Assembly (NCBI RefSeq): GCF_005233835.1
Contig: NZ_SZQA01000002.1
Coordinates: 62,001 to 126,000, forward strand
DNA: 64,000 nt
Origin: Herbidospora galbida
GTDB taxonomy: Bacteria > Actinomycetota > Actinomycetes > Streptosporangiales > Streptosporangiaceae
Direction: 5' to 3'
Position numbers and translations under genes: made by a program. Every line of letters starts with the position of its first letter. The first letter of the stretch is position 1. This document shows positions 47,124 to 61,677 of the stretch, one piece after another. A model generated the notes under the pieces. It was not told where the DNA came from, ran no database searches, and was given only the letters and a program-made list of their open reading frames with translations.

Positions 47124-47126
47124 ACT
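47113..47126. promoter_or_regulatory. Tandem GCATACT repeat at the regulator start
   Basis: GCATACT-GCATACT (47113-47126) spans the start codon of the regulator. TTGCA also occurs at 47111 and 47134. The tandem repeat could be a regulator-binding site, but no clear palindrome is seen. Confidence 0.35.
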
Positions 47127-47171
47127 TTAATTCTTGCACTGTTCTGTAGTACCTCAGAAGGGGCCACAGTG

Positions 47172-48023: not shown

Positions 48024-48024
48024 C

Positions 48025-48726
48025 ATGGACGTGCTGTTCAACGGGCTCGTCGACGCCGTCAGGCTGTTGCTCACCGGCGACCAGGACAGCTGGTCGATCA
48101 CCGCGCTGACCCTGCGCGTCTCGCTGACCGCGACCGCGATCGCCCTGCTGGTGGGACTGCCGCTGGGGGCGACCGTCGCACTGGCCCGTTTCCCGGGCCG
48201 GCGGCTCGCCCTGGCGGCGGTGAACACCGGGATGGGCATGCCGCCGGTGGTGGTCGGCCTGTTCGTCACCGTCCTGCTGTGGCGCAGCGGACCGGTCGGC
48301 GGTCTCGGGCTGCTCTACACCCCGACCGCGATGATCATCGCCCAGTCCGCGATCGCCACCCCCATCGTGATCGCCCTGGTCGCGGCCGCCCTGCAACAGG
48401 TCGACCCCGACTTCCGAGTACAGATGCAGGCTCTCGGAGCAACCCCGATCCGCGCCTTCGCCGCGCTCCTGGGCGAAGCCAGGTTGCCGCTGCTGGCCGC
48501 CGCGATGGCCGCGTTCGGCGCGGTGGTGAGCGAAGTCGGCGCCGCGCAGATGGTCGGCGGCAACCTGGCCGGACAGACCCGCGTGCTGACCACCGCCGCC
48601 GTGCTGGCCACCAGCCGGGGCCAGTTCTCGCTCGCGATCGCGTTCGGCCTGATCCTGCTGCTGATCGCGTTCTGCGTGAACCTGTCACTGACCCTGATCC
48701 AGCAACGGCAGACGGTCCCGCGATGA
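48025..48726 (+). CDS. tupB: Tungstate ABC transporter permease
   Basis: This is a 233-residue inner-membrane permease with about five helices. The cytoplasmic coupling motif EVGAAQMVGGNLAGQTRVL is the EAA-type loop contacting the ATPase. VGLPLGATVALARFPG and GMGMPPVVVGLFVTVLLWRS match TupB/WtpB-type permeases. Its stop overlaps the ATPase start (ATGA), so stoichiometry is translationally tied. Confidence 0.93.
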   Translation: MDVLFNGLVDAVRLLLTGDQDSWSITALTLRVSLTATAIALLVGLPLGATVALARFPGRRLALAAVNTGMGMPPVVVGLFVTVLLWRSGPVGGLGLLYTPTAMIIAQSAIATPIVIALVAAALQQVDPDFRVQMQALGATPIRAFAALLGEARLPLLAAAMAAFGAVVSEVGAAQMVGGNLAGQTRVLTTAAVLATSRGQFSLAIAFGLILLLIAFCVNLSLTLIQQRQTVPR

Positions 48727-49763
48727 GCACCGGAATCGGCTGCCGGAACCTGCGCGTGTACGCCGCCCGCAGGGAGTTGCTCAACGTGCCGGAGCTGGAC
48801 GTGGCGTCGGGACGCACACTGGCCGTGCTGGGCCCCAACGGCGCCGGCAAGTCCACCCTGCTGCGCGCACTGGGCCACGTCAGCAGCCACCGCGTCAGCG
48901 GAGAGATCCTGCTCGACGGCCGCCCCGCGACGCGGTCGCAGATGCGCGACGCGGTCGTGGCCGTCCTGCAACGCCCGATCATGCGCCGCGGCACCGTGGC
49001 CGCCAACGTCATCACCGGCCTGCGCTTCCGCGGCATGAGCCACCGCGAGGCCCGCACCCGCGCCCGGCCGTGGATCGAAGCGCTCGGCCTCGAACCCCTC
49101 GTCGACCGAGACGCCCGCAGCCTGTCCATAGGCGAGGCCCAGCGGGTCAGCATCACCCGCGCACTGGCGGTCGCCCCCCGCGTGCTGCTGCTCGACGAGC
49201 CGTTCAGCGGACTCGACAGCACCACCCGCGCCGACCTGCTGGCCGACCTGCGCGCCGCACTGACAGGGCAGCCGACCGCTACGATCCTGGTCACCCACGA
49301 CCGCCACGAGGCCCTCGCCCTGGCCGAGGACACCGCCCTGCTGATCGACGGCCGCATCCGCCAGCACGGCCCGACCGCCGAGGTGCTCGACCGCCCCGGC
49401 GACCCCGACACCGCCCGGCTGCTCGGCTACACCAACCTCCTCCCCCCGACTCTCACCGGCGGCCCGCACACCGTCGTGGCCCGACCCGAGCACACCCAGC
49501 TCGCCCTCCACGGCGTGGTCGAAAGCGATGACGCGTGGACGGTGACCGGAACCCTGCGCCGGACGGTCGCGCTCGGCGTCGCCACCCGCGTCGACGTCGA
49601 CACGTCTGCGGGCCCGCTGACCTGCCTGCACCCTGGTGACCTGCTCGCCACCGAGCTTCCCGCTGTGGGCGGCGAGGTCCGGGTCAGAGTCCGGCAGGCG
49701 CGGTCGCTGGCCACATCTGACCTCGTGGCACCCGGTCCCTTCAGGAGTGCCGATGGCGAATGA
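48723..49763 (+). CDS. tupC: Tungstate ABC transporter ATPase
   Basis: This is a 346-residue ATPase. Walker A is GPNGAGKST, the signature is LSIGEAQRVSI (Gly-Glu in place of the usual Gly-Gly), and Walker B is VLLLDEPFSGLDS. The switch His lies in LVTHDRHEA. A C-terminal extension after about residue 240 (VVARPEHTQLAL onward) is a TOBE-like regulatory domain, as in ModC. It powers tungstate import. The last 11 bp overlap the start of the next gene. Confidence 0.92.
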   Translation: MSTGIGCRNLRVYAARRELLNVPELDVASGRTLAVLGPNGAGKSTLLRALGHVSSHRVSGEILLDGRPATRSQMRDAVVAVLQRPIMRRGTVAANVITGLRFRGMSHREARTRARPWIEALGLEPLVDRDARSLSIGEAQRVSITRALAVAPRVLLLDEPFSGLDSTTRADLLADLRAALTGQPTATILVTHDRHEALALAEDTALLIDGRIRQHGPTAEVLDRPGDPDTARLLGYTNLLPPTLTGGPHTVVARPEHTQLALHGVVESDDAWTVTGTLRRTVALGVATRVDVDTSAGPLTCLHPGDLLATELPAVGGEVRVRVRQARSLATSDLVAPGPFRSADGE

Positions 49764-50266: not shown

Positions 50267-51469
50267 TCATGAAGCGGTTCTCTCCCTTCGGCGCATGGCC
50301 TGCCGGTAGGCGGCGACGGTTTCGCGGGCGACGCGGTCCCAGCTGTAACGTGCGCTCGCCCGGTCGGCCCCCGCGATGCCGTAGGCCGCGGATCGGGCCG
50401 GGTCGTCCAGCAGCCGGCCGACCGCCTCGGCCAGTGACTCCGGACGGCGGGGGGCGACCAGCAGGCCGGTGACCCCGTCCACCACGGTGTCCTGCTGGCC
50501 TCCCACGGCGGAGGCGATCACCGGCACCCCGCAGGCCATCGCCTCCAGGACGACCATGCCGAAGGGCTCGTACCAGGGCACGCACACCACTGCGGTGGCC
50601 GAGCGCATCAGGCCCGGTACGTCGTCCCTGGCCACCTGGCCGGTGAAGATCACCCGGTCGGCCACGCCCAGCCGGTCGGCCGTCGCGCGCAGGCGGGTCG
50701 CCTCCTCGTCGCGGTGCAGGTCGGCGAGGGGCAGCCCGCCGCCCACCACGAGCTCCACGCCGGGCAGGTACGGCAGGGCCGCGATGATCGTGTCCACGCC
50801 CTTGCGGGGCACCAGCCGTCCGATCGACAGCAAGCGGGGTCGGTCGGGCCGTTCGGCGGGCGGTACGCCGGGATGGAAACGGTCCAGGTCCACGCCGCAC
50901 GGCACCACCTGGGTGCGGTGCCGGGCGATGCCCATTCTGACCAGCTCGTCCACCTCGTCGGGACAGGTCGAGACGATCACGTCGGCGCGGTGGCCGATGG
51001 CCGTCTCGGCGGCGATGCGGCCGGCCGGGCTGGTGTCCACGGCGCCCTGGTGGCGGCGCTTGACCGTGCCGAGGGCGTGGTAGGTGTGGGCGAACGGGAT
51101 GCCCAGCCGCCGGGCGGCGTCGAGGGTGGCGAGCCCGCTCATCCAGAAGTGGCTGTGGGCCACGTCCGGGCGGTCGAAGGTCCACTGTTCCCGCAGCCAT
51201 TCGGCGAACCTCGGCACCCAGGGCAGGATGTCGTCCTTCGGGATCGGCGCCGGCGGCCCGGCCGGGACGTGCGCCACCGTCACCCCCGGCGCGAACGGCA
51301 CCCGCTGCGGCGTCCGGGGATCGTCGCGCCGGGTGTAGACGGTCACCTCGTGACCGAGTGCGGCCACGGCGGTCGCCAGGGCCGCCACATGGACGTTCTG
51401 ACCTCCCGCGTCCGGGCTGCCCAGGGCGGCGAGCGGGCTGGCGTGCTCGGAGACCATGGCGATCCTCAT
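50267..51469 (-). CDS. GT4-type glycosyltransferase (GT-B, MshA-like)
   Basis: This 400-residue GT-B enzyme opens with EHASPLAALGSPDAGGQNVH, the start typical of retaining GT4 transferases such as MshA and sucrose-phosphate synthase relatives. It has FAHTYHALGTVKRRH and VVPCGVDLDRFHPG. LSIGRLVPRKGVDTIIAAL and PWYEPFGMVVLEAMACGVPV, the E-x7-E motif, bind the donor diphosphate. ATG 51469 overlaps the upstream GT stop (ATGA). It is the last gene of a three-transferase operon that probably works with the heptose genes. Confidence 0.88.
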   Translation of the reverse strand: MRIAMVSEHASPLAALGSPDAGGQNVHVAALATAVAALGHEVTVYTRRDDPRTPQRVPFAPGVTVAHVPAGPPAPIPKDDILPWVPRFAEWLREQWTFDRPDVAHSHFWMSGLATLDAARRLGIPFAHTYHALGTVKRRHQGAVDTSPAGRIAAETAIGHRADVIVSTCPDEVDELVRMGIARHRTQVVPCGVDLDRFHPGVPPAERPDRPRLLSIGRLVPRKGVDTIIAALPYLPGVELVVGGGLPLADLHRDEEATRLRATADRLGVADRVIFTGQVARDDVPGLMRSATAVVCVPWYEPFGMVVLEAMACGVPVIASAVGGQQDTVVDGVTGLLVAPRRPESLAEAVGRLLDDPARSAAYGIAGADRASARYSWDRVARETVAAYRQAMRRRERTAS

Positions 51470-52371
51470 CGCGCGACCTCCTTCAGCAGCCGGTCCCAGT
51501 CCGCGAGGAACCGGGCCAGGCCGTACCGTTCGAGCGCCGCCGCGCGGGCCGCCTTCCCGGTCTGACGGGCGAGTTCCGGGTCGTCGAGCAGCGCCCGCGC
51601 CGCCCTTGCGAGCCGGGCGGGATCGGTGGACAGTGCTCCGGCGTCCGGCGGCACGGCCTCGACCGCCTCGGTGGAGGCCACCGTCACCACCGGCATCCCC
51701 ATGGTCATCGCCTCCAGCAGGGACAGTCCCAATGACGTCCAGCGATAGGGGTGGACGTAGACCCGCCGCCGGGCCAGTTCGGTCAGCATGCGGTCGTGGG
51801 GGAGGTCGCCCTGGCCGTTCTCCAAGTCGTCGGTGCCGATGCCGAAGAGGTCGACGGGGGCGAACAGGGACAGCAGGTCGGTTCCGGCCACCCTGGTCCT
51901 CCGCACGGGCTCGTTGATCACGGCGGCGGCGCGGGGCAGTTCGCCGGTGTAGCGGTGGCCGGGGTCCGGGATCCCGTGCTCGATCACCGTGGTGGCGGCC
52001 CGGCCGTTGTCCCAGAAGAGCCGGTTGAAGTGGGTGACGTGCACGATCGGCACGCCGCTCTCGGCCATGGGATGGCGCGTGCGCACGTCGGGCGGGGTGT
52101 TGTGCTCGACGTAGACCGCCGGGACGTCGCGGCCCAGCCACCGGCGGGCCAGGTCGGCGTCCTGAGGGCGCTGCAGCACCACGACGTCCACGTCCTCGTC
52201 GCGGAGCCGGTCGGGAGTGACCTCGCGGGCGTTGTCCGGCCAGGCGTAGGTGAGGGCGCGGCCCCGGCCGTCGGGGCCCCGGTCCGGCGTCACCGGGACC
52301 AGGTAGTCGTGAGGGCCGTGGACGAAGGCGGTCATCCACGAGCCGTGCACGTGCCAGACCAGGATTCTCAC
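51466..52371 (-). CDS. GT4-like glycosyltransferase
   Basis: This is a 301-residue GT-B protein, shorter than usual GT4 enzymes. Key segments are ILVWHVHGSWMTAFVHGPHD, VYVEHNTPPDVRTRHPM, VIEHGIPDPGHRYTG and YVHPYRWTSLGLSLLEAMTM, the last being a donor-binding E-x7-E-type region. Cytosolic transfer of a sugar to the growing glycan is likely. GTG 52371 overlaps the GT9 stop (GTGA) and its own stop overlaps the next gene (ATGA). Longer upstream frames lie antisense or within the GT9 gene and are not used. Confidence 0.8.
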   Translation of the reverse strand: MRILVWHVHGSWMTAFVHGPHDYLVPVTPDRGPDGRGRALTYAWPDNAREVTPDRLRDEDVDVVVLQRPQDADLARRWLGRDVPAVYVEHNTPPDVRTRHPMAESGVPIVHVTHFNRLFWDNGRAATTVIEHGIPDPGHRYTGELPRAAAVINEPVRRTRVAGTDLLSLFAPVDLFGIGTDDLENGQGDLPHDRMLTELARRRVYVHPYRWTSLGLSLLEAMTMGMPVVTVASTEAVEAVPPDAGALSTDPARLARAARALLDDPELARQTGKAARAAALERYGLARFLADWDRLLKEVAR

Positions 52372-53354
52372 CGCATGACCTCCATGATCGCCTGATGGAC
52401 CTGGTCGGGAGTGACCGAGCTCAGGCACGGATGCCCCAGCAACGGGCAGACCGTGGCCCGGGTGTCGGCGCAGGCCGCCCGCTGGTCGCCGAGCACCCGG
52501 CGGCGTACTCCATAGGGAGCCCAGCGCACGGCGGGCACGGTCGGCGCGAACAGCGACACCACCGGGGTTCCCACGGCGGCGGCGAGGTGGGCCGGGCCGG
52601 TGTTGCCCGCCACGACGACCCGCGCCCCCGCCAGCGCTCCGGCCAGTTCGGCCAGGGTGGTCCGGCCGCCCAGATCGATCCCGTGCCGCCCGGCCACCCG
52701 GGCGGTCAGTTCCCGCTCGCCGGGGGAGCCCGTGACCACGACCCGGTGGCCGTGCCCGGTGAGCAGCTCGACGAGGGCGGCGCAGTGGCCCGGCGGCCAG
52801 GCGCGGGCGGGCACCGACGTGCCCGGATGGACGACGAGATAGCCGGAGGGCAGATCCGGCTCGGGGAGCGGGCCCCGTACGGACAGAGACGAACCGACCG
52901 GCGGATAGCCGGCGGCGGTGGTCAGGCTGAGGGCGCGCTCGGGCTCGGGGATGTCGTCGGGCACCTGGTGCCGCAGATCCAGGAGCGAGCCGGGGTAGTC
53001 GACGCTGATCGCGCCGATCCATGGGATCCGCGCCATCCGCAGCAACAGCGCCAGCGGGAGCGGCGACTGGTGGAAGGAGGTGAAGATCAGTGCCCGGTCG
53101 ACGTCCTCCACCATCTTGACCAGCAGGTTCAGCTGGTCAGGGTCGACGGGGCCGGGGTCGGGCTCGATCCAGGGCGCCGGCCACTCGAGCACGCGGTCGA
53201 CCCCCGGCAGCAGCTCGGCGGCGGCCCGCCCCCGTGGACCCGCCAGCAGGGTCACCCGTGCCGCGCCCGCCGCGACGGCCCGTACGGCGGGACCGGTGAG
53301 CAGGACGTCTCCCACGCTGTCGAGACGGGCCAGCAGTACATGATCAGATCGCAC
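52368..53354 (-). CDS. GT9 glycosyltransferase (ADP-heptose:heptosyltransferase-like)
   Basis: This is a 328-residue inverting GT-B enzyme. The GT9 pattern is LLARLDSVGDVLLTGPAVRA at the start, YLVVHPGTSVPARAWPPGH and VVAGNTGPAHLAAAVGTPVV. The latter is the heptosyltransferase ADP-sugar site (usually GDSGPxHLA). It probably transfers an ADP-activated sugar such as heptose, consistent with HldE and GmhA nearby. A late CADTRATVCPLLGHPC cluster of cysteines may bind metal. It is first in its operon after a 187-bp AT-rich spacer. Confidence 0.85.
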   Translation of the reverse strand: MRSDHVLLARLDSVGDVLLTGPAVRAVAAGAARVTLLAGPRGRAAAELLPGVDRVLEWPAPWIEPDPGPVDPDQLNLLVKMVEDVDRALIFTSFHQSPLPLALLLRMARIPWIGAISVDYPGSLLDLRHQVPDDIPEPERALSLTTAAGYPPVGSSLSVRGPLPEPDLPSGYLVVHPGTSVPARAWPPGHCAALVELLTGHGHRVVVTGSPGERELTARVAGRHGIDLGGRTTLAELAGALAGARVVVAGNTGPAHLAAAVGTPVVSLFAPTVPAVRWAPYGVRRRVLGDQRAACADTRATVCPLLGHPCLSSVTPDQVHQAIMEVMR

Positions 53355-53541
53355 CTGAGCCCCCCGGAGTGTGAGTGGTCGAATTACATAGGGCCATATC
53401 CGGCGTATTTAGTGTGAAACATCGGGAATATCTGTTCTATTGCTCTGAATTTCATGGCAGCAGGTCATTCCTTTGTCGGCGTTTCACGCTGATTGGCGCT
53501 GAAAAAGGAGAAGAATGGCTGACTGACCCTAAGGAGGCATC
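53355..53541. promoter_or_regulatory. AT-rich divergent promoter region
   Basis: This spacer between the GT operon and the isochorismatase gene contains the AT-rich stretch 53380-53470 (TCGAATTACATAGGGCCATA and onward). That is markedly lower GC than its surroundings, as promoters or Lsr2-bound DNA often are. An AAGGAGG ribosome site (53531-53537) serves the rightward gene. Confidence 0.4.
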
Positions 53542-54078
53542 GTGAGCGGTTCTGTCGCGGTCGTCGTGATGGACATGCTGAACGCCTACGATCACGACGA
53601 CGCCGATGCGCTCGTGGCGAACGTGGAGCGGGTGGTCGAGCCTCTCGCCGGGCTGATCGAGAAGGCCGTCCGGACCGACGCGGAGTTGTTCTTCGTCAAC
53701 GACAACCAGGGCGACTTCAACGCCACCCGCGACGACCTGGTGCGGCGTGCGTTGGCCGGGAAGCGTCCCGACCTGGTCGAACCGCTCCTGCCGCCGGACG
53801 GCTGTGCCTTCCTGCAGAAGGTGCGGCACAGCGTCTTCTACGGCACGGCGCTGGAATACGCCCTGCATCGCGAGCGCATCGAGACGGTGGTGCTGGCCGG
53901 TCAGGTCACCGAGCAGTGCGTGCTCTACAGCGCCCTCGACGCCTACGTGCGCGACTTCTCGGTACGGGTGGCGGTCGACGGCGTGGCTGCGATCCATGAA
54001 GACCTCGGGGCTGCGGCGTTGCGGATGATGGAGCGGAACATGCGGGCCGAACTCGTCCCGGCGGCCGACTGCCTGTGA
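53542..54078 (+). CDS. Isochorismatase-family cysteine hydrolase
   Basis: This 178-residue enzyme has the Asp-Lys-Cys triad layout of nicotinamidase and isochorismatase-like hydrolases. Asp11 lies in VVVMDMLNAYDH, Lys in FLQKVRHSVFYGT and Cys in VTEQCVLYSALDAY. The cis-peptide segment LAGQVTEQC is typical. It hydrolyses an amide or enol ether in the cytoplasm; the substrate is not evident. It lies alone on the plus strand between two minus-strand glycan operons. GTG start with AAGGAGG. Confidence 0.85.
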   Translation: MSGSVAVVVMDMLNAYDHDDADALVANVERVVEPLAGLIEKAVRTDAELFFVNDNQGDFNATRDDLVRRALAGKRPDLVEPLLPPDGCAFLQKVRHSVFYGTALEYALHRERIETVVLAGQVTEQCVLYSALDAYVRDFSVRVAVDGVAAIHEDLGAAALRMMERNMRAELVPAADCL

Positions 54079-54079
54079 G

Positions 54080-55024
54080 TCAGCCCTTCAGCGGCGCCAG
54101 CTCCTCGGCGAACCATCTGATCGTGCGGCGCAGGCCCTCGGTGGCGGGGACGCGTGGCCGCCAGCCCAGCCGGTCGGCGGCCAGCGAGGTGTCCGGGCAG
54201 CGTCGACGCGGGTCGTCGACCGGGCGGCCGATGTAGCTGACGGCAGAGGTGGAGCCGGCCAGGTCGCGGATCAGGCGGGCCAGTTCGATCATGGTCAGCT
54301 CGGCCGGGTTGCCGATGTTGACCGGGCCGGGGAAGTCGCTGTCGGCCAGCGCGAGGATGCCGTCGACCGTGTCCTGGACGTAGCAGATCGACCGGGTCTG
54401 GTCGCCGTCGCCCGTGACGGTGATGGCCTCTCCGGTGAGGGCCTGGCGGATGAACGTGGGGATCGCCCGCCCGTCGAACGGCCGCATCCGGGGCCCGTAG
54501 GTGTTGAAGATCCGGACGATCGCCGTGTCGACGCCCTGGGACTGCCGGTAGGCCGTCGTGAGCGATTCGGCGAAGCGCTTGGCCTCGTCGTACACGCTGC
54601 GGGGGCCGACGGGGTTGACGTTGCCCCAGTAGTCCTCGCGCTGGGGATGTTCGAAGGGGTCGCCGTAGACCTCGCTGGTGGAGGCCAGCAGGAACCGGGC
54701 GCCCTTCTCCCTGGCCAGGCCGAGCGCGCGGTGGGTGCCGAGGCTGCCGACCTTGAGCGTCTCGACGGGGTAGGCGAGGTAGTCGGCGGGGGAGGCCGCC
54801 GAGGCGAAGTGCAGGACGAGGTCGACGGGACCCGACACGTGCACGAAGCCCGTGACGTCACAGTCGACGAGCCGGAATCCCGGGTGTTCCATGAGGTGGG
54901 CGACGTTGTCGGGGTTTCCGGTGAGCAGGTTGTCCAGGCAGATCACCTCGTCACCCCGGCCGATCAGCCGCTCGCACAGATACGACCCCAGGAATCCGGC
55001 CCCGCCGGTCACCACGACCCTCAT
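54080..55024 (-). CDS. UDP-glucuronate decarboxylase-like NAD-dependent epimerase/dehydratase
   Basis: This 314-residue extended SDR has GGAGFLGSYLCERL, LHFASAASPADYLAYPVETL, ASTSEVYGDPFEHPQREDYW and YDEAKRFAESL (YxxxK). The run FNTYGPRMRPFDGR and GDGDQTRSICYV matches UDP-xylose synthases (UXS/ArnA-type decarboxylase). It probably forms UDP-xylose or a related sugar for the glycan. ATG 55024 overlaps the GT9 stop (ATGA). It is the last gene of the seven-gene heptose operon and shows no HldD epimerase signature. Confidence 0.85.
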   Translation of the reverse strand: MRVVVTGGAGFLGSYLCERLIGRGDEVICLDNLLTGNPDNVAHLMEHPGFRLVDCDVTGFVHVSGPVDLVLHFASAASPADYLAYPVETLKVGSLGTHRALGLAREKGARFLLASTSEVYGDPFEHPQREDYWGNVNPVGPRSVYDEAKRFAESLTTAYRQSQGVDTAIVRIFNTYGPRMRPFDGRAIPTFIRQALTGEAITVTGDGDQTRSICYVQDTVDGILALADSDFPGPVNIGNPAELTMIELARLIRDLAGSTSAVSYIGRPVDDPRRRCPDTSLAADRLGWRPRVPATEGLRRTIRWFAEELAPLKG

Positions 55025-55890
55025 GTCACCCTCACTTCCAGCAGGTCCCGGGCCGCGCCCAGCACCTCGTCGATCGTGATCTCCAGGAGCCCGGGGTCGG
55101 GTGCCCGGCCGTGCGGGTCGCCGGTGCGGCCGTGCCACAGCACGTGGTGGGGCCCCGGCGGCGGCCCCCACAGAACGGGCGGGGTGGGCCCGAACAGCAC
55201 CACGGACGGCGTCCCGAACGCACTGGCCAGGTGGGCCACCCCCGTGTCGCCGCAGATCAGCAGCCGTGCGCCGCGAACGAGCCCGGCCAGCTCACGAAGG
55301 GTCGGTGCGAGCGCCACGCCCTCGGGCCCGGCGGCCTGCTCCGCCAGCGCGCCCTCTCCCGGGCCGGCCGTCACCACCACGGGCCATCCCGCGCCGTGCA
55401 GCCACGTCGCCACCTCGGCGAAGCGGTCCGGCGGCCAGCGCCGGGCCGCCGAAGCCGCGCCGGGATGGATGACGACGGGCCCGGTCCGGCCGCCCGACCC
55501 CAGCCGGAGGTCCGCGGGATCGGCGTCGAGGCCGTACCAGCGGAGCAGGTCGCACCACCGGGTGACCTCGTGGACGCCGGGATCCCAAGGTGGGCCGGTC
55601 GTGTGGCTCATCAGCAGGCGCGGCCCGACGGCCCGCAGCGCCGCGACGCTCTGGGGCCCCCGCCCGTGCAGGTTGACGGCGATGTCACAGGTGTCGAGCG
55701 GCACCGGTCCCGGTCCGGAGACGTCGAGCCACGCGTCCACCTCGCCGCCCAGGATCTCCCGGTACGTCGTGGGCGCGGCCAGGACCAGACGGTGCCCCGG
55801 GAAGGCCCTCCGCAGGGCGCGCAGCGCGGGAAGTCCCGTCAGCAGGTCGCCGAGCCCGAGTCCCCGGAGCACCAGCAGGTCTAGGGCCAC
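55021..55890 (-). CDS. GT9 glycosyltransferase (heptosyltransferase-like), second copy
   Basis: This 289-residue transferase starts LLVLRGLGLGDLLTGLPALR, then has VVIHPGAASAARRWPPDRFA and LLICGDTGVAHLASAFGTPS. These are the GT9 donor-site motifs. It lies directly beside the epimerase, with ATGA coupling, and overlaps the SDR gene by 10 bp. With the copy at 52,368 it makes two potential ADP-heptose-using transferases in one locus. Donor and acceptor are unproven. Confidence 0.85.
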   Translation of the reverse strand: MALDLLVLRGLGLGDLLTGLPALRALRRAFPGHRLVLAAPTTYREILGGEVDAWLDVSGPGPVPLDTCDIAVNLHGRGPQSVAALRAVGPRLLMSHTTGPPWDPGVHEVTRWCDLLRWYGLDADPADLRLGSGGRTGPVVIHPGAASAARRWPPDRFAEVATWLHGAGWPVVVTAGPGEGALAEQAAGPEGVALAPTLRELAGLVRGARLLICGDTGVAHLASAFGTPSVVLFGPTPPVLWGPPPGPHHVLWHGRTGDPHGRAPDPGLLEITIDEVLGAARDLLEVRVT

Positions 55891-56561
55891 GAGGTCTCCA
55901 TCGAGTGGGCGACCACCAGTTCCCTGATCTCACACCCGGGGGGCTGGGACAGCGCGAAGACGACGGTCTCGGCGACGTCCTCGGCCCGGTTCAACTGGGC
56001 GTCGGGTCCCGGTCTGTACTGCTCGGGCCGGTCGTCGAAGAAGTGGGTGCTCATGCCGCCGGGGATCAGCATCGTCACGCCCACCTTCCCGGCCAGCTCG
56101 GCCGCGAGCGCGCGGGTGAAGCCGACCACGCCGAACTTGCTGGCGCAGTAGGCCGTGGCGTCGCCGACGGCCTTGATTCCGAGCGTGGACGCGCAGGTCA
56201 CCACCCTTCCCCGGCTCTCCGTCAGGTAGGGCAGCGCGGCCCGCACCACGGCGGCCGTGCCGAAGAGGTTGACCTTGACGACCCGCTCCCAGTCTTCGGC
56301 GGGGACGTCGGCGAGAGCGCCGCAGGAGTCGGTGCCGGCCGCGGTGAAGACCCCGTCGAGCCCACCGGCCCGGTCGGCCAGCGACCGCACGGCGGCGGCG
56401 GTCGCCGCGCCGTCGGCCAGATCGGCCCTGATGTGCTCAAGGTCGTCGTCGGGCGCGGCACGGTCGATGACGAGCGGCCGGCCGCCCGCTTTGGCCACGG
56501 CCTTGGCGGTCGCCAGGCCGAGACCCGACGCGCCTCCGGTGATCAGGATGTTTCCCAGCAT
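55881..56561 (-). CDS. Short-chain dehydrogenase/reductase in the heptose operon
   Basis: This 226-residue SDR has ITGGASGLGLATAKAVAKAG, FTAAGTDSCGALADVP, a catalytic Ser in VVTCASTLGIK and the YCASKFGVVGF active-site pair. It could oxidise or reduce a sugar or a glycan building block. ATG 56561 follows AAAGGA. It begins 11 bp after hldE and overlaps the GT9 start by 10 bp, so it is co-expressed with the pathway. Confidence 0.82.
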   Translation of the reverse strand: MLGNILITGGASGLGLATAKAVAKAGGRPLVIDRAAPDDDLEHIRADLADGAATAAAVRSLADRAGGLDGVFTAAGTDSCGALADVPAEDWERVVKVNLFGTAAVVRAALPYLTESRGRVVTCASTLGIKAVGDATAYCASKFGVVGFTRALAAELAGKVGVTMLIPGGMSTHFFDDRPEQYRPGPDAQLNRAEDVAETVVFALSQPPGCEIRELVVAHSMETSWP

Positions 56562-56572
56562 CGTCGGTCCTT

Positions 56573-57916
56573 TCAGGCGGTCACGCCCGTGGTACGGGCT
56601 GCGGTGATCAGTCGGGTGGTGGAGCGGCCGGGCACCGTCTCCAGCAGCACCGACTCGGCTCCGAGTTCGGCGAGCACCGCCGATTCCGGCAACTCCCGGC
56701 CGCCGTAGTCGGAGCCCTTGACCCAGATGTGCGGGCGCAGGGCCCTGATGGCGTCGGCCGGCGTGTCCTCGTCGAAGATCACGACGCCGTCCACGTCCTC
56801 GAGCGCGGCCAGCACCGCCATCCGGTCGCTCTGGCCGCAGACGGGCCGGCCGGCTCCTTTGAGCCGGCGTACCGACAGGTCGGAGTTGAGACACACGATC
56901 AGCAGGTCGCCCAGTCGCCTGGCCCGGCGCAGGAGGCTGACGTGCCCGGCGTGCAGCAGGTCGAAGCAGCCGCCGGTGGCGACCACCCGGCCGCCGGAGC
57001 GGCGGACCCGGTCGGCGAGGCGGAAGGCGTTCACGCCCTCGTCGGCGCCGCCGGTCCGGACGGACGAGGCGCCTCCTCCGGCGACGAACCGGGAGGCCGC
57101 CTCGGTCGCGGTCCGGACGGCCTCGGCGGCGACGGCCCCGCCGAGCAGGCCGGTGGCGGCGGACGCGGCGAACCGGTCGCCGGCGCCGCAGGTGTCGCCG
57201 CCGGTGACCGGCCGCACCACCGGCACCGGGAACGCCTGCTCTGGGGAGCGGAAGAAGGCCCCTCCGGCTCCCAGCGTGATCGCGACCGCCTCGCCGTCCA
57301 GCATGGTGAGCAGGCGGTAGGCGGCCGTCGCCGGTTCGCCGGCCCCGGTCATCGCGGCCGTCTCGGTGAGGTTGGGCGTCACCAGCGTGCACCCCGGCGG
57401 CGGCAGCGGGCCGCGCGGATGGGGATCCCACACCACGGGGGTGCCCGTCGACCGGCGGAGCGCGGGCAGCAGGCCGGTCACCAGGTCGGCGGTGCCGCGC
57501 CCGTAGTCGGAGACCAGGATCGTCCCGGCCTGGCCCAGGGCCGCCACCGCGCCTTCGGTCAGTCCGGCGGCCACGCCGTCGCCGGAGTCGACGCGGGTCA
57601 GCGTGGCGCCACCGGCTCTGATGCGGGTCTTGCGCACGGTCGTGCCGCGCATCGGAAGCGGGACGACGAACAGGTGGCGGCTCAGCATCCGGTGCAGCAG
57701 GCGGCCGTCCGGGTCGTCGCCGATCGGCGTGATCAGCACGACCTCCGCGCCGTCGGCCGCCGCCAGGAGCGCCGCCAGCCCGGCCCCGCCCGGCCTTACG
57801 CGTTCGAAGACGTCCTCGACGACGGGCGCGCCGGAGTCGGGCGCGACCCGCTCGCTGCGCCCGTCGAGATCGCAGTCGAGCAGGGTGTCGCCGATCACGA
57901 CGAGGGGACCGGTCAT
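56573..57916 (-). CDS. hldE: Bifunctional heptose-7-phosphate kinase / heptose-1-phosphate adenylyltransferase
   Basis: This 447-residue two-domain enzyme has N-terminal PfkB-type kinase residues ~1-300: GDTLLDCDLDGRSERVAPDS, LVSDYGRGTADL, VTPNLTETAAMTG and catalytic GAGDRFAASAATG. The C-terminal nucleotidyltransferase domain (~312-447) has GGCFDLLHAGHVSLLRRAR (GxFDxxHxGH) and GRSTTRLI. It phosphorylates sedoheptulose-derived heptose 7-phosphate, then makes ADP-heptose from heptose 1-phosphate. The domain order is as in Gram-negative HldE. The gene is coupled to gmhA (ATGA). Confidence 0.9.
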   Translation of the reverse strand: MTGPLVVIGDTLLDCDLDGRSERVAPDSGAPVVEDVFERVRPGGAGLAALLAAADGAEVVLITPIGDDPDGRLLHRMLSRHLFVVPLPMRGTTVRKTRIRAGGATLTRVDSGDGVAAGLTEGAVAALGQAGTILVSDYGRGTADLVTGLLPALRRSTGTPVVWDPHPRGPLPPPGCTLVTPNLTETAAMTGAGEPATAAYRLLTMLDGEAVAITLGAGGAFFRSPEQAFPVPVVRPVTGGDTCGAGDRFAASAATGLLGGAVAAEAVRTATEAASRFVAGGGASSVRTGGADEGVNAFRLADRVRRSGGRVVATGGCFDLLHAGHVSLLRRARRLGDLLIVCLNSDLSVRRLKGAGRPVCGQSDRMAVLAALEDVDGVVIFDEDTPADAIRALRPHIWVKGSDYGGRELPESAVLAELGAESVLLETVPGRSTTRLITAARTTGVTA

Positions 57917-58464
57917 GGCAGCGCCTCCTCGATCGCCTCGCAGAGCAGATGCACCATCACCAGATGCACTTCCTGCACCACGGCCGGGCTGGCCGACGGG
58001 ATCATGATCGCGTCGTCGCTCAGGCAGGCCAGGTCGTTGGGCGGTGGGCCGGTGAACGCCCAGGTCATCAGGCCGTGGTCGCGGGCGGCGCGGGCGGCGG
58101 CCAGTACGTTCGGGCTGGCGCCGCTGGTGGACAGGCAGATCAGCACGTCGCCGGGCCGTCCGTGGGCCTCGACCTGGCGGGCGAACACCTCGTCCGGGCC
58201 GTAGTCGTTGACGATCGCCGTCACCGAGGAGGTGTCGGCGTGCAGCGGGATGGCGGCGTAGGCGCGGCGGTCGGTGCGGAACCGCCCGACGAGTTCGGCC
58301 GTCAGGTGCTGCGCCTCGGCCGCCGATCCGCCGTTGCCGCAGGCCAGCAGCCGCCCGCCGTCGTCGAGGACCCCGGCCAGCTTGCGGCCCCACATCCGGA
58401 TCCGGATCGTCTCGTCGGCCAGCCGGGTCAGCACGTCGCTCAGGTCGATCAGGTGCGGATGCAC
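57913..58464 (-). CDS. gmhA: Sedoheptulose-7-phosphate isomerase
   Basis: This 183-residue SIS-domain enzyme performs the first step of heptose synthesis (sedoheptulose 7-phosphate to D-glycero-D-manno-heptose 7-phosphate). The pattern ACGNGGSAAEAQHLTAELVG contains the His/Glu that bind zinc. LSTSGASPNVLAAARAA holds the phosphate, and VVQEVHLVMVHLLCEAIEE supplies further catalytic residues. GTG 58464 has GGGGAG at 7 nt. It overlaps hldE (ATGA) and the GT2 gene (16 bp). Confidence 0.9.
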   Translation of the reverse strand: MHPHLIDLSDVLTRLADETIRIRMWGRKLAGVLDDGGRLLACGNGGSAAEAQHLTAELVGRFRTDRRAYAAIPLHADTSSVTAIVNDYGPDEVFARQVEAHGRPGDVLICLSTSGASPNVLAAARAARDHGLMTWAFTGPPPNDLACLSDDAIMIPSASPAVVQEVHLVMVHLLCEAIEEALP

Positions 58465-59414
58465 AGGCGGTCTCCCCTCAGCAGTAGTTCGCCGCGCAGG
58501 CGGTGGAGGCACGCGGCGGGCGGGATGAGCACGCTGGTCGCCACCATGCGGATCACCTCCTGCGCGGTACGCGGCCCCGGCGCGATCCGCGTCCAGGCGA
58601 ATTCGGCGGTGAGCCCGGCCCACCCCGCGAAAGCCACGGCGGGCACCCACCAGGCGCGCCGGGCCAGCACGGCCGACCCGATCGCGGCGACCCCGAACGC
58701 CGTGGTGAGCACGTGACGGCCCAACCGGCCGGAGCCGCCCACCCGGGACCGCCACCCGGGGCCGTGGACCCGGCGCATCAGCGCGTCGTCGGCGTTGCCC
58801 CGCTGCCGCCGCACGCTCGCCCAGAACCCGTCGTCCCGCACCGGATGGACGGTCGTCCGCTCTCCCCTCACGAGGCGGTGACCGGCCGCCGTCAGGCGCA
58901 GCGCCAGGTCGGCGTCCTCCCGGTAGGCGCGGGGAAACCGCTCGTCGAAGCCGCCCGCGCCGGCCAGGGCCGACCGCCGGTAGGCCATGTCGGCGGTGAT
59001 CCATTCGGCGGTGGCCAGTCCGGCCGTGTTGCGCTCGGCGTCGCTCGGCCGCCGGCCCGGGTCGAGGGGGACGACGATCCGCCCCTGCGACCCCGCCACT
59101 TCAGGCGGCAGCTCACGGAGATCGCCGTCGAGCGCGTCGGCCCAGCCCGGTGCGGGGACCACGTCGTCGTCGAGGAACACCACCCACTCCGCGGAGGCCG
59201 CGCGCCATCCCCGGTTCCTGGCGGCCGCCGGTCCGCGCCCGCCGGAGGCGATCACCGTGACGTCGGCCGCCAGGTCACCCATCGGCAGGGGAGCCGCGCC
59301 GGGACGGTCGTCCACGACGATCACCCGCATGCCCTCGGGCATCGCCGCCAGGACGGCACCCAGGCTGTCCCGCCCCACGGTGGGGATCACCACCGTGATC
59401 GAGAGATCCGTCAT
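58449..59414 (-). CDS. GT2 glycosyltransferase with C-terminal membrane helices
   Basis: This 321-residue GT-A enzyme has VVIPTVGRDSLGAVLAAMPE and AAARNRGWRAASAEWVVFLD with the DDD metal motif (FLDDDVVP). RVHGPGWRSRV and FPRAYREDADLALRLTAAGH (ED motif) follow. The C-terminal 90 residues include hydrophobic segments (VLTTAFGVAAIGSAVLA, WWVPAVAFAGWAGLT), suggesting membrane attachment. The gene is coupled by ATGA to the carbamoyltransferase. It probably starts or extends the glycan at the membrane. Confidence 0.85.
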   Translation of the reverse strand: MTDLSITVVIPTVGRDSLGAVLAAMPEGMRVIVVDDRPGAAPLPMGDLAADVTVIASGGRGPAAARNRGWRAASAEWVVFLDDDVVPAPGWADALDGDLRELPPEVAGSQGRIVVPLDPGRRPSDAERNTAGLATAEWITADMAYRRSALAGAGGFDERFPRAYREDADLALRLTAAGHRLVRGERTTVHPVRDDGFWASVRRQRGNADDALMRRVHGPGWRSRVGGSGRLGRHVLTTAFGVAAIGSAVLARRAWWVPAVAFAGWAGLTAEFAWTRIAPGPRTAQEVIRMVATSVLIPPAACLHRLRGELLLRGDRLCIRT

Positions 59415-61039
59415 ACCGACCGCCGCACCAGATAGGGCCCCAGGGCCAGCACGTCGACCGGCGCCGACCCGAAGCACTCCAGGGCGTCGCGCGGGTCGTC
59501 GACCATGGGCCGCCCGGCCGTGTTCAGCGAGGTGTTGACGACCACGGGCAGCCCGGTCAGCGACTCGAAGGCGTTCAGCATCGCGGCGAGCAGCCGATCC
59601 CGTCCGGCCGAGACCGTCTGGATGCGGGCGGTCCCGTCCACGTGGACGACGGCGGGGATCCGCCCCCGCCAGGCCGGGGCGACGTCGTGCACGAACAGCA
59701 TGTACGGACTGGGCACCGGCCCCCGGGAGAAGAGCTCGGCGGCTCGATGCTCCAGCACCATGGGCGCCACCGGCCGGAACTGTTCCCGGCCCTTCACGTC
59801 GTTGAGCCGCTCGGTGTTGCGCGGGTTGCCCGGGTGGGCCAGCAGAGAACGGCGGCCCAGGGCGCGGGGCCCGTACTCGCTGCGACCCTGGAACCAGGCC
59901 ACGATCCGGTCCTGCGCCAGCGCGTCGGCCACCGCGACCGCGATGTCGGGCGGGCGCGTGTACGGCACCTGGGCGATGTCGAGCCACGCGGCGAGTTCGG
60001 CCTCGCCGAACCCCCTGCCGAGATCGGCCCCCGGCATCGCCGCCACCGGTTCGCCGTGGGCCCTGGCCAGGTGGAGCGCGCCTCCCAGCGCCGTCCCCGA
60101 ATCGCCGGCGGCAGGTTGCGCCCACACCTCCCGGAACGGCCCCTGCTCGAAAAGCCGGGTGTTGGCCACGCAGTTCAGCGCGACGCCGCCGGCCAGGGCG
60201 AGCCGGTCCATGCCGGTGCGCTCGTGCAACCAGCAGGCCAGCTCGAGCAGCACCTCTTCCAGCCGGGCCTGGACGCTCGCCGCCAGGTCGGCGTGCTCGG
60301 CCGACCAGGGGTCGCCGCGCCGCAGCTGCTTGGCGAACACGTTCCAGTCGATCGGGCCGACGTGGAAGCCGCCGTCACCGGTCGCGCCCACCAGATCACG
60401 GAAGACCGGCAGATGCTTCGGCGTGCCGTACGACGCCATCGCCATGACCTTGTACTCGTCGCTCGACCGCAGGAAGCCGAGGTGCTCGGTGACCTCCTCG
60501 TACATGAGCCCGAGAGAGTGCGGCAGTTCCTGCGCGGCCAGGACGGTCAGCTCGCCGTCCACATAGACGCCGGACAGATGGGAGACCGCCTCGCCCCGCC
60601 CGTCGCACACCAGGACCGCGCAGTCGCCGAAGGGCGCGGCGAGCCCGGCCGACGCCGCGTGGGCGACGTGATGCGGTACGTAGCCGACCTGGGCCGGGTC
60701 GAGCCCCGGCAGCGCGCTGGCCAGGAAGTTCGGCGCGCGCTGGGCATAGGTGGTGCGCAAAGACTCCCAGCCCCGGTCCTGGCCCGGACCGCCCGGCACG
60801 ACCAGGGCCGGGTCGTAGGAGTAGGCCACTCCGTCGAGGTCCTCGGGCCGCAGACCGGCTTCCTCCAGGCACCACGCGGCGGCCATCTCGGGCAGTTCCC
60901 AGGCGGAGAAGGCGACCGGGCGTTTGCCGTGCTTCCTCCGGCTGAAGCGCTCTTCCTCGGCGGCGGCGACGATACGTCCGTCGACGACCAGCGCCGCCGA
61001 AGGATCATGGAATATGGCGTTGATTCCCAGAAACTTCAC
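59411..61039 (-). CDS. Carbamoyltransferase (NodU/CmcH/TobZ family)
   Basis: This 542-residue enzyme transfers a carbamoyl group from carbamoyl phosphate, via carbamoyl-adenylate, to a sugar hydroxyl. The N-terminal Kae1-like part has FHDPSAALVVDG, AAAEEERFSRRKHGKRP and VPHHVAHAASAG (metal/ATP His). The C-terminal YrdC-like part has WFQGRSEYGPRALGRRS and KGREQFRPVAPMVL. In antibiotics and Nod factors it decorates sugars. The GTG start at 61039 faces a divergent HAD phosphatase. It is the first gene of the heptose operon. Confidence 0.9.
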   Translation of the reverse strand: MKFLGINAIFHDPSAALVVDGRIVAAAEEERFSRRKHGKRPVAFSAWELPEMAAAWCLEEAGLRPEDLDGVAYSYDPALVVPGGPGQDRGWESLRTTYAQRAPNFLASALPGLDPAQVGYVPHHVAHAASAGLAAPFGDCAVLVCDGRGEAVSHLSGVYVDGELTVLAAQELPHSLGLMYEEVTEHLGFLRSSDEYKVMAMASYGTPKHLPVFRDLVGATGDGGFHVGPIDWNVFAKQLRRGDPWSAEHADLAASVQARLEEVLLELACWLHERTGMDRLALAGGVALNCVANTRLFEQGPFREVWAQPAAGDSGTALGGALHLARAHGEPVAAMPGADLGRGFGEAELAAWLDIAQVPYTRPPDIAVAVADALAQDRIVAWFQGRSEYGPRALGRRSLLAHPGNPRNTERLNDVKGREQFRPVAPMVLEHRAAELFSRGPVPSPYMLFVHDVAPAWRGRIPAVVHVDGTARIQTVSAGRDRLLAAMLNAFESLTGLPVVVNTSLNTAGRPMVDDPRDALECFGSAPVDVLALGPYLVRRSV

Positions 61040-61076
61040 GGGACCCCGCTTTCGCGTGGTACAGCATGACTCGGGC

Positions 61077-61103
61077 GAAGCGCTACTGAGAGAAGCGCTT
61101 CTC
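61077..61103. promoter_or_regulatory. Palindrome GAGAAGCGCTTCTC between the carbamoyltransferase and gmhB-like genes
   Basis: A perfect 14-bp palindrome at 61090-61103 has a second GAAGCGCT half-copy at 61077-61084. It sits centrally in a 128-bp divergent spacer, so one regulator could control both the heptose operon and the phosphatase. Confidence 0.55.
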
Positions 61104-61167
61104 GAACGTCCGCGCCCTGTTCGGCGGAGTTCGCATCGGCGACCGGGCCCCCGGGTAGCGCGAGATC

Positions 61168-61677
61168 ATGCTCGCGATTCTGTTCGACCGGGACGGGACC
61201 CTCGTCGACGACATCCCCTACAACAACGACGCCAAACGCGTGCGCCCGAAGCCCGGCGCGCGGGCCGCGCTCGATCGCCTGCGGGCGGCGGGGATCCCGA
61301 TCGGAGTGATCACCAACCAGTCGGGAGTGGCCAGAGGGCTGATCACCCTGCGTGAACTGGCGGCGGTCAACGCGCGCGTGGAGGAGCTGCTGGGGCCCTT
61401 CGACGTGTGGGAGGTCTGCGTACACGGCGAGGCCGACGGGTGCCCGTGCCGTAAGCCGGCCCCGGGCATGGTGCTGTCGGCGGCACGGCGACTGGGCGTG
61501 CCGCCGGGGGACTGTGTGGTGATCGGCGACATCGGCCGCGACATGGAGGCCGCCGAGGCCGCCGGAGCGCGCGGCATCCTCGTGCCCACACCGGTGACGA
61601 GGGCCGAGGAGGTCCGCGCGGCCAGGGAGACCGCCCCCGACCTGGCCGCCGCGGTCGAGGCGGCGCTGTCCGGATGA
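61168..61677 (+). CDS. gmhB: GmhB-like heptose bisphosphate phosphatase (HAD)
   Basis: This 169-residue HAD phosphatase begins LFDRDGTLVDDIPYNNDAKR, with nucleophile Asp in DRDGT. It has ITNQSGVARGLIT, the zinc loop CVHGEADGCPCRKPAPGM (Cys-x-His with two later Cys) and the IGDIGRDMEAAEAAG motif. GmhB removes the 7-phosphate from heptose 1,7-bisphosphate between the two HldE steps. Related HisB phosphatases share the fold, but the gmhA and hldE context favours GmhB. It is divergent from the carbamoyltransferase operon. Confidence 0.8.
   Translation: MLAILFDRDGTLVDDIPYNNDAKRVRPKPGARAALDRLRAAGIPIGVITNQSGVARGLITLRELAAVNARVEELLGPFDVWEVCVHGEADGCPCRKPAPGMVLSAARRLGVPPGDCVVIGDIGRDMEAAEAAGARGILVPTPVTRAEEVRAARETAPDLAAAVEAALSG

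What the first reader, a model, noticed from the sequence alone, without database searches (positions are those of the whole stretch)
50267..61677. Compact heptose-based glycan locus with carbamoyl decoration in an actinomycete
Within 11 kb the locus holds gmhA, hldE and a gmhB-like phosphatase (the whole route from sedoheptulose 7-phosphate to an ADP-heptose). It also has two GT9 transferases of the heptosyltransferase family, three other glycosyltransferases, a UXS-like epimerase, an SDR and a carbamoyltransferase, with tight ATGA coupling throughout. ADP-heptose pathways belong to Gram-negative LPS, and this organism has no LPS. No HldD epimerase, flippase, polymerase or acceptor gene is visible, so the product may be a carbamoylated heptose glycolipid, a capped surface sugar or a secreted metabolite. 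Heptose-type enzymes together with a carbamoyltransferase recall natural-product sugar modules, though no NRPS or PKS is present in the window.
Basis: partly seen in the sequence, partly recalled or inferred. Interest (0 to 1): 0.8.

Follow-up and report, generated by a model that had tools for sequence, protein, structure and literature searches.

The report
Actinomycete cwg-type heptose envelope-glycan operon
This stretch of an actinomycete genome is the local version of a known but chemically unexplained gene cluster (cwg, "cell wall glycan") that probably builds a small carbamoylated sugar from heptose and xylose for the cell envelope of bacteria that have no LPS.

Summary
Window 50267-61677 carries gmhA, hldE, a gmhB-like phosphatase, two GT9 and three other glycosyltransferases, a UXS-type enzyme, an SDR and a carbamoyltransferase. 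No HldD reaches its cut-off in the genome. The locus is not an orphan: it corresponds to the Streptomyces coelicolor cwg operon (SCO6179-6190, putative cell wall glycan operon, vancomycin-induced). The bridge is a S. violaceorubidus locus with the same gene order and the published cwg promoter at 27 of 29 bases. Of 57 long named loci, chosen by the carbamoyltransferase, 48 hold at least 8 of 11 genes. New inferences: the second donor is probably UDP-xylose; HldE carries the arginine linked to broad nucleotide use; both GT9s largely keep the heptosyltransferase donor site. Against: enzymes score below equivalog cut-offs, no sigma-E-like site was found in this genus, and the late cwg GT2 genes were not found here. 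Product, carrier and export are unknown. Verdict: new member of a known, under-characterised kind.

The parts
59411..61039 (-). CARB, O-carbamoyltransferase (position of cwgB)
   Evidence: Pfam Carbam_trans_N/C; best PDB 7xb6, then 9s2t (decarbamoylnovobiocin carbamoyltransferase), TobZ, GdmN; 67-89% identity to 12 relatives, H11 D12 H123 H127 D146 invariant
58449..59414 (-). GT2-type glycosyltransferase (position of cwgC)
   Evidence: Pfam Glycos_transf_2; 4-base overlap with CARB; one weak PDB match, E 0.0024; hydropathy peak 1.38
57913..58464 (-). gmhA, sedoheptulose 7-phosphate isomerase (position of cwgH)
   Evidence: TIGR00441 E 7e-52, below its cut-off; best PDB phosphoheptose isomerase 1tk9 E 4.2e-41, ahead of DiaA; GNGGSAxxAQH...AEL and QExH kept
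56573..57916 (-). hldE, heptose 7-phosphate kinase / heptose 1-phosphate nucleotidyltransferase (position of cwgI)
   Evidence: GAGD, HxGH and GRSTT present
55881..56561 (-). SDR-family oxidoreductase, role unknown
   Evidence: adh_short; in 32 of 57 long named loci and in 0 of 23 Streptomyces loci, some of them short
55021..55890 (-). GT9a, heptosyltransferase-family transferase (position of cwgJ)
   Evidence: Glyco_transf_9 82.4 bits; the 5 PDB hits at E 0.01 or better are GT9/WaaC/WaaF
54080..55024 (-). EPI, UDP-glucuronate decarboxylase (UXS) type, probably making UDP-xylose (position of cwgA)
   Evidence: best PDB UDP-glucuronate decarboxylase E 2e-100; next different enzyme E 2.4e-38
53542..54078 (+). 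isochorismatase-like gene interrupting the operon; probably not part of the pathway
   Evidence: named by reading, no family scan; directly after GT4 in 4 of 5 same-genus relatives and elsewhere in the fifth, L039
52368..53354 (-). GT9b, heptosyltransferase-family transferase (position of cwgE)
   Evidence: Glyco_transf_9 90.2 bits; AlphaFold2 model pLDDT 91.3; first 9 fold matches are GT9 3tov, WaaF and WaaC chains
51466..52371 (-). GTb, short GT-B glycosyltransferase (position of cwgF)
   Evidence: Glycos_transf_1; model pLDDT 92.7; fold matches BshA, GlgM, PimB', sucrose-phosphate synthase
50267..51469 (-). GT4 glycosyltransferase (position of cwgG)
   Evidence: Pfam GT4/GT1 domains; best PDB Tll1590 E 4.5e-73, then 3c4q E 1.7e-44; one search names these sucrose-phosphate synthase and MshA
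61168..61677 (+). gmhB-like heptose 1,7-bisphosphate phosphatase, divergent (position of cwgD)
   Evidence: histidinol-phosphatase/HAD-IIIA domain over cut-off, GmhB models below; best PDB 4pnh D,D-heptose 1,7-bisphosphate phosphatase E 5.8e-20, nearly tied with 3l8h and 2o2x; DRDG and CxH..CxCRKP kept

Best explanation
The locus is this lineage's version of the cwg operon. It makes two activated sugars in the cytoplasm and assembles them, with a carbamoyl group, into a short envelope glycan. Inferred route: sedoheptulose 7-phosphate is turned by GmhA, HldE kinase, GmhB and HldE nucleotidyltransferase into an NDP-D-glycero-D-manno-heptose (ADP-, possibly also CDP- or UDP-heptose), which stays in the D,D form because there is no HldD. 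EPI converts UDP-glucuronate to UDP-xylose. GT9a and GT9b transfer heptose; GT4, GTb and GT2 add other sugars, one presumably xylose. CARB carbamoylates a hydroxyl, most likely on heptose, as in the Pseudomonas LPS core. No convincing membrane segment was seen in the 11 proteins, so the carrier or acceptor and the export step would be encoded elsewhere. The product would serve the envelope under wall stress. Shown: gene content, families, correspondence to cwg, conserved synteny, retained motifs. Inferred: sugar identities, carbamoyl site, carrier, export and function.
For: Families. Correspondence to cwg: L101 (S. violaceorubidus) has EPI-CARB-GT2-gmhB-GT9b-GTb-GT4-gmhA-hldE-GT9a and a further GT2-like gene; published names fit at positions 5, 7, 8 and 9: cwgE heptosyl transferase, cwgG glycosyltransferase, cwgH phosphoheptose isomerase, cwgI bifunctional synthase/transferase; the published cwg promoter is in L101 at 27 of 29 bases. 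Synteny: 5 of 6 same-genus genomes; 48 of 57 long named loci with at least 8 of 11 genes. In 296 Actinomycetota genomes (own genome included) CARB is in 29, HldE in 34, both in 24, and in 23 of those 24 within 10 kb. UXS; four nucleotide-sugar dehydrogenases over cut-off in the genome, and a gene of that type near the module in 11 of up to 110 loci (by reading). Motifs kept. GT9b fold. Heptose carbamoylation by WapO in Pseudomonas.
Against: HldE, GmhA, GmhB and the GT9s are below curated equivalog cut-offs, so a related but different sugar is possible; NCBIfam ranks EPI nearest dTDP-glucose 4,6-dehydratase, also below cut-off. The published label of cwgD, 'putative dehydratase', does not say phosphatase; a HisB-type name transfer could explain it (the gene also matches HisB), but that was not tested. 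The cwgK/L-like GT2 genes seen in 36 loci were not found in the window or its genus. The cwg promoter, searched in all loci held, came up in L101 only at up to 7 mismatches. No sigma-E-like site upstream in the window's genus; over all loci 15 of 94 CARB and 6 of 63 EPI upstreams match, against 9.5% of random stretches. GT9b has N where WaaC has D. Five of 57 long loci have CARB alone; 10 sampled genomes have HldE without CARB and 5 the reverse.
Confidence: 0.72

Rival explanations
1. The cluster makes a secreted small molecule (a heptose-containing natural product like septacidin or hygromycin B) rather than an envelope component.
For: Heptose enzymes with a carbamoyltransferase related to tobramycin, novobiocin and geldanamycin tailoring enzymes; ADP-heptose is an intermediate of septacidins; no carrier, flippase or ligase gene among the 11.
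Against: The module is conserved across many actinomycete families (48 of 57 long loci with at least 8 of 11 genes). Genes shared beside it in part of the loci read as a GT2-type transferase (36 loci), an aldehyde dehydrogenase (12), a protein of unknown kind (12) and a nucleotide-sugar dehydrogenase (11), not as scaffold genes (by reading). The Streptomyces counterpart is induced by wall-active antibiotic.
Confidence: 0.14
2. The enzymes use other sugars: the GmhA/HldE/GmhB-like proteins act on a non-heptose sugar phosphate and the GT9s are not heptosyltransferases.
For: Scores below equivalog cut-offs; WaaC K192 aligned to R in both GT9s and D261 to N in GT9b; weak sequence match to solved heptosyltransferases and GT9 proteins, best E 2.6e-10 and 9e-11.
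Against: gmhA, hldE and gmhB occur together in 41 of 57 long loci; best solved relatives of GmhA and GmhB are heptose enzymes; the GT9b model matches GT9, WaaF and WaaC best.
Confidence: 0.1
3. NDP-heptose itself or a soluble heptoside is the end product, used inside the cell (signal, protein glycosylation), and no envelope glycan is made.
For: No convincing membrane segment in the module (crude hydropathy); bacterial protein heptosylation exists, and TibC is among the GT9b fold matches.
Against: Five glycosyltransferases and a carbamoyltransferase in linkage suggest an oligosaccharide; the S. coelicolor counterpart responds to vancomycin.
Confidence: 0.07

Closest known systems
cwg operon of Streptomyces coelicolor (SCO6179-6190, cwgA-L)
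   Same: Gene content and, in the Streptomyces relatives mapped here, gene order; published names fit at cwgE, cwgG, cwgH and cwgI.
   Different: In the window the order is rearranged (gmhB divergent, EPI inside), there is an SDR and an isochorismatase-like insertion, cwgK/L-like GT2 genes were not found beside it, and no sigma-E-like site was found upstream.
Gram-negative ADP-heptose pathway and LPS inner-core heptosyltransferases (GmhA, HldE, GmhB, WaaC/WaaF)
   Same: Same enzyme set up to an NDP-D,D-heptose; GT9 fold and most of the donor-site pattern.
   Different: No HldD over cut-off; enzymes below equivalog cut-offs; no LPS acceptor expected in this organism.
Pseudomonas LPS core cluster with WapO carbamoyltransferase
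   Same: Heptosyltransferases near a putative carbamoyltransferase that decorates heptose (passages of PMC8005017).
   Different: A working parallel only; WapO was not compared by sequence here, and no heptose kinase of the LPS-core kind is in the module.
Septacidin / hygromycin B heptose biosynthesis in Streptomyces
   Same: Heptose from sedoheptulose 7-phosphate in an actinomycete.
   Different: No nucleoside or aminoglycoside scaffold gene among the module genes; the module is widely conserved.
Tridomain NDP-heptose synthetases of actinobacteria (Tang et al. 2022; title only)
   Same: Actinobacterial NDP-heptose synthesis already in print.
   Different: Here GmhA and the two-domain HldE are separate genes.

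Membership tests
cwg (cell wall glycan) operon | Gene set and order incl. transferases, heptosyltransferase, phosphoheptose isomerase and bifunctional HldE | tested here: met
   10 of the window's 11 module genes match L101, where they stand in the published order; SDR is the exception. Names from passages; the label 'putative dehydratase' for cwgD does not fit by name
cwg (cell wall glycan) operon | Identity of the bridging Streptomyces locus with cwg | tested here: met
   Published cwg promoter at 27 of 29 bases in L101 position 8710, EPI alignment starting at 8939; no other held locus within 7 mismatches. The S. coelicolor sequence itself was not fetched
cwg (cell wall glycan) operon | Late genes cwgK/cwgL (assumed GT2-type from Streptomyces loci) | tested here: not met
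   GT2-like cluster in 36 loci, not in the window (L072) or L035-L039; that it equals cwgK/L is inferred
cwg (cell wall glycan) operon | Sigma-E-dependent promoter upstream | tested here: not met
   No pattern match within 300 bases upstream of CARB or EPI in the window or 5 same-genus loci; the pattern also misses the L101 site, so the test is weak
cwg (cell wall glycan) operon | Induction by vancomycin / role in envelope stress | not testable with these tools
   Known for S. coelicolor only
NDP-D,D-heptose pathway (GmhA-HldE-GmhB) | All enzymes present with catalytic motifs | tested here: met
   roles of the motifs are recalled
NDP-D,D-heptose pathway (GmhA-HldE-GmhB) | Curated equivalog score | tested here: not met
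   HldE 241.9 of 521 bits, GmhA 175.6 of 209.45, GmhB 107.3 of 178
ADP-L,D-heptose pathway | HldD 6-epimerase | tested here: not met
   15 genome hits, none over 274.6 bits; best 111
UDP-glucuronate decarboxylase (UXS) | Closest solved relatives are UXS, clearly ahead of other enzymes of the fold | tested here: met
   339.7 bits against 135.8 for the next enzyme; NCBIfam gives no UXS model over cut-off
GT9 heptosyltransferase | GT9 profile and fold | tested here: met
   for both; fold for GT9b only
GT9 heptosyltransferase | Transfers heptose | not testable with these tools
   needs an assay
Known heptose antibiotic cluster | Scaffold and resistance genes beside the heptose genes | tested here: inconclusive
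   None among the module genes and none recognised by reading in flanking clusters; no BGC caller was run and window 1-44000 was not examined

The most novel reading that the evidence does not exclude
Actinomycetota widely make a dedicated non-LPS 'inner-core-like' envelope oligosaccharide: a carbamoylated D,D-heptose and xylose glycan, built from NDP-heptoses by a nucleotide-promiscuous HldE and raised under cell-wall attack. It would be a monoderm counterpart of the LPS core and a source of ALPK1-stimulating NDP-heptoses in organisms thought of as lacking them.
Probability: 0.4. Interest if true: 0.7.

Novelty: new member of a known kind. Interest (0 to 1): 0.42.

Why it matters
[quoted passage not shown] This analysis turns it into a concrete chemical prediction (NDP-D,D-heptose, UDP-xylose, carbamoyl) that can be tested in S. 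coelicolor, a laboratory organism, and shows the module in many actinomycete families. If right, heptose is a common envelope sugar in monoderm actinomycetes, relevant to how they meet wall antibiotics and to NDP-heptose sensing.

Tried and rejected
Natural-product reading: kept as a rival at low odds. The module is conserved in many families. Neighbouring genes are shared in part of the loci (a GT2-like gene in 36, others in 10-12), but none read as a scaffold gene. Some clusters look like antisense shadow frames and were left aside.

Sigma-E promoter conservation: not supported outside S. violaceorubidus. The pattern misses even the L101 site (which has CATCTT), so it is a weak test.

HldD hidden in the locus: rejected. 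EPI scores 59.8 bits for TIGR02197 against a cut-off of 274.6, and 339.7 bits to solved UXS.

Membrane anchor in GT2: hydropathy peak 1.38, below the 1.6 used; four stretches at 1.62-1.90 in GT4, HldE and CARB lie in soluble-family proteins. Crude and inconclusive.

WapO kinship of CARB: not tested; no WapO sequence was at hand.

The first gene caller labelled genes unreliably; I used tblastn maps instead. In one search a locus with one GT9 could count for both GT9a and GT9b, since the best hit per query was taken.

Odds: after rechecking, the confidence was lowered from 0.75 to 0.72 and the first rival raised from 0.13 to 0.14, because of the cwgD label, the missing cwgK/L-like genes and the shared neighbours.

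Papers: PMC11573728 and PMC11461863, part 1 of 2 of the text each. Search passages only: PMC5839063, PMC6767563, PMC5882110, PMC4630627, PMC3123327, PMC13011467, PMC8005017, PMC7300013, PMC10948575, PMC3902916. Hong et al. 2002, Tang et al. 2018 and Tang et al. 2022 were seen only as citations. Of the eight literature searches, those (5 of 5; 18 of 18) were listed in full; some searches were capped lists.

Full report
What is there. The window is bases 62001-126000 of contig C29 in an 8.3 Mb genome. On the minus strand, in transcription order, lie CARB, GT2, gmhA, hldE, SDR, GT9a and EPI, then, after an inserted plus-strand isochorismatase-like gene, GT9b, GTb and GT4; gmhB is divergent upstream of CARB. 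Five junctions overlap by four bases (coordinates). The heptose enzymes match their families strongly but lie below NCBI's equivalog cut-offs: HldE 241.9 of 521 bits, GmhA 175.6 of 209.45, GmhB 107.3 of 178.

Which sugars. GmhA is closest to solved phosphoheptose isomerases, ahead of the related DiaA. GmhB is closest to D,D-heptose 1,7-bisphosphate phosphatase 4pnh, nearly tied with two proteins of other names. HldE's nucleotidyltransferase half matches 5x9q (named putative cytidylyltransferase there) and its kinase half the heptose 7-phosphate kinase 4e84. GAGD and the two histidines of HxGH are invariant in the 12 aligned sequences, window included. No HldD reaches the cut-off in the genome (0 of 15 hits), so the expected product is the D-glycero form. 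HldE ends in TVPGRSTT. EPI is closest to UDP-glucuronate decarboxylase among solved structures (339.7 bits against 135.8 for the next enzyme), though NCBIfam's best model for it is dTDP-glucose 4,6-dehydratase, below cut-off. Four nucleotide-sugar dehydrogenase genes in the genome exceed their cut-off, and a gene of that type lies near the module in 11 of up to 110 loci (by reading). So UDP-xylose is the likely second donor.

The transferases. Both GT9s hit only GT9, WaaC and WaaF structures at E 0.01 or better. An AlphaFold2 model of GT9b (pLDDT 91.3) has GT9 3tov, WaaF and WaaC chains as its first nine matches; a plant NDH-PSI subunit is tenth, then TibC. Against WaaC, whose residue numbers and roles I recall rather than looked up, D13, E222 and H266 are kept in both, K192 becomes R in both, and D261 is kept in GT9a but N in GT9b (alignments; invariance of GT9b positions). 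GTb is a short GT-B fold like BshA, GlgM and PimB'. GT4 is nearest Tll1590, a sucrose-phosphate synthase, then 3c4q, an MshA (names). CARB belongs with TobZ, NovN-type and GdmN carbamoyltransferases. A crude hydropathy scan finds four stretches at 1.62-1.90 in GT4, HldE and CARB and none above 1.6 in the other eight proteins; I take none as a membrane anchor.

What it is. The genes lie together in 5 of 6 same-genus genomes and, rearranged, in other families; in the sixth, G006, no HldE like the window's was found. Of 57 loci of at least 19 kb, 48 carry at least 8 of 11 genes, 41 carry gmhA, hldE and gmhB together, and 5 carry CARB alone. In 296 Actinomycetota genomes, own genome included, CARB (E at most 1e-150) is in 29, HldE (E at most 1e-60) in 34, both in 24; in 23 of those 24 their starts lie 2.8-7.6 kb apart; 5 have CARB only and 10 HldE only (Fisher p about 1e-22, not corrected for kinship).

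In Streptomyces the common order is EPI, CARB, GT2, gmhB, GT9b, GTb, GT4, gmhA, hldE, GT9a, in L101 followed by another GT2-like gene. Published names for S. coelicolor SCO6179-6190, the cwg operon, fall on the same positions for cwgE (heptosyl transferase), cwgG (glycosyltransferase), cwgH (phosphoheptose isomerase) and cwgI (bifunctional synthase/transferase); cwgD is called 'putative dehydratase', which does not fit a phosphatase by name (passages). The cwg promoter printed in PMC6767563 occurs at 27 of 29 bases in the S. violaceorubidus locus L101, about 0.2 kb before the EPI alignment, and in no other locus then held at up to 7 mismatches. I conclude that the window locus is the cwg operon type in this lineage, without the cwgK/L-like GT2 genes. 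The S. coelicolor sequence itself was not fetched, so L101 is the bridge.

What is known about cwg. [quoted passage not shown] cwg genes are raised in an argR mutant and cwgA by salt. I found no report of its product in the held library (searches, most of them capped lists; not a complete survey). The sigma-E link could not be shown for this genus.

Mechanism proposed. Two nucleotide sugars are made, joined by five cytoplasmic transferases on an acceptor from elsewhere, and carbamoylated. The Pseudomonas LPS core offers a working parallel, a carbamoyltransferase decorating heptose, without any claim of membership. Carrier, export and final location are not encoded here and remain open.

Verdict. 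A real, conserved and interesting locus, but of a named kind. What is new is the sharper chemical prediction and the breadth of distribution. Interest 0.42.

Noticed in passing
G000:C106 about 98970-103560 (L066 6474-11057): A second locus in the same genome with a GT4 72% identical to the window's GT4, two GT9 genes and an HldE-like gene; the same set was seen in all 6 same-genus genomes, including G006, where no HldE like the window's was found.
   Followed up: partly
window 53542-54078: Isochorismatase-like gene inside the operon on the opposite strand; in four of five same-genus relatives it lies directly after GT4 on the operon's strand, in the fifth (L039) elsewhere. A relocation, or an assembly error.
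   Followed up: partly
23 Streptomyces loci among L100-L156: The SDR gene was found in none of 23 Streptomyces loci (some are short) but in 32 of 57 long loci overall.
   Followed up: partly
L101 20269-21252 and 35 other loci: A further GT2-like glycosyltransferase family lies near the module in 36 loci (probably cwgK/cwgL) but not in the window or its genus loci.
   Followed up: partly
L086, L093, L097, L098, L122: CARB of this clade stands without any other module gene within the fetched stretch (Modestobacter, Geodermatophilus and one Microtetraspora), so it may have a further role or the module is split.
   Followed up: no
L070 8889-12000 (G002:C13): Another gmhA-like and hldE-like pair with a distant carbamoyltransferase (38%) in a same-genus genome, possibly a different heptose cluster.
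   Followed up: no
window 46164-49763: A regulator and an ABC system that reads like tungstate uptake (TupABC) beside the locus; named by reading, and not found beside it in the five same-genus relatives.
   Followed up: no
L136, L159: Module genes on short contigs of MAGs labelled Methylomirabilota and Eremiobacterota; may be transfer or binning error.
   Followed up: no
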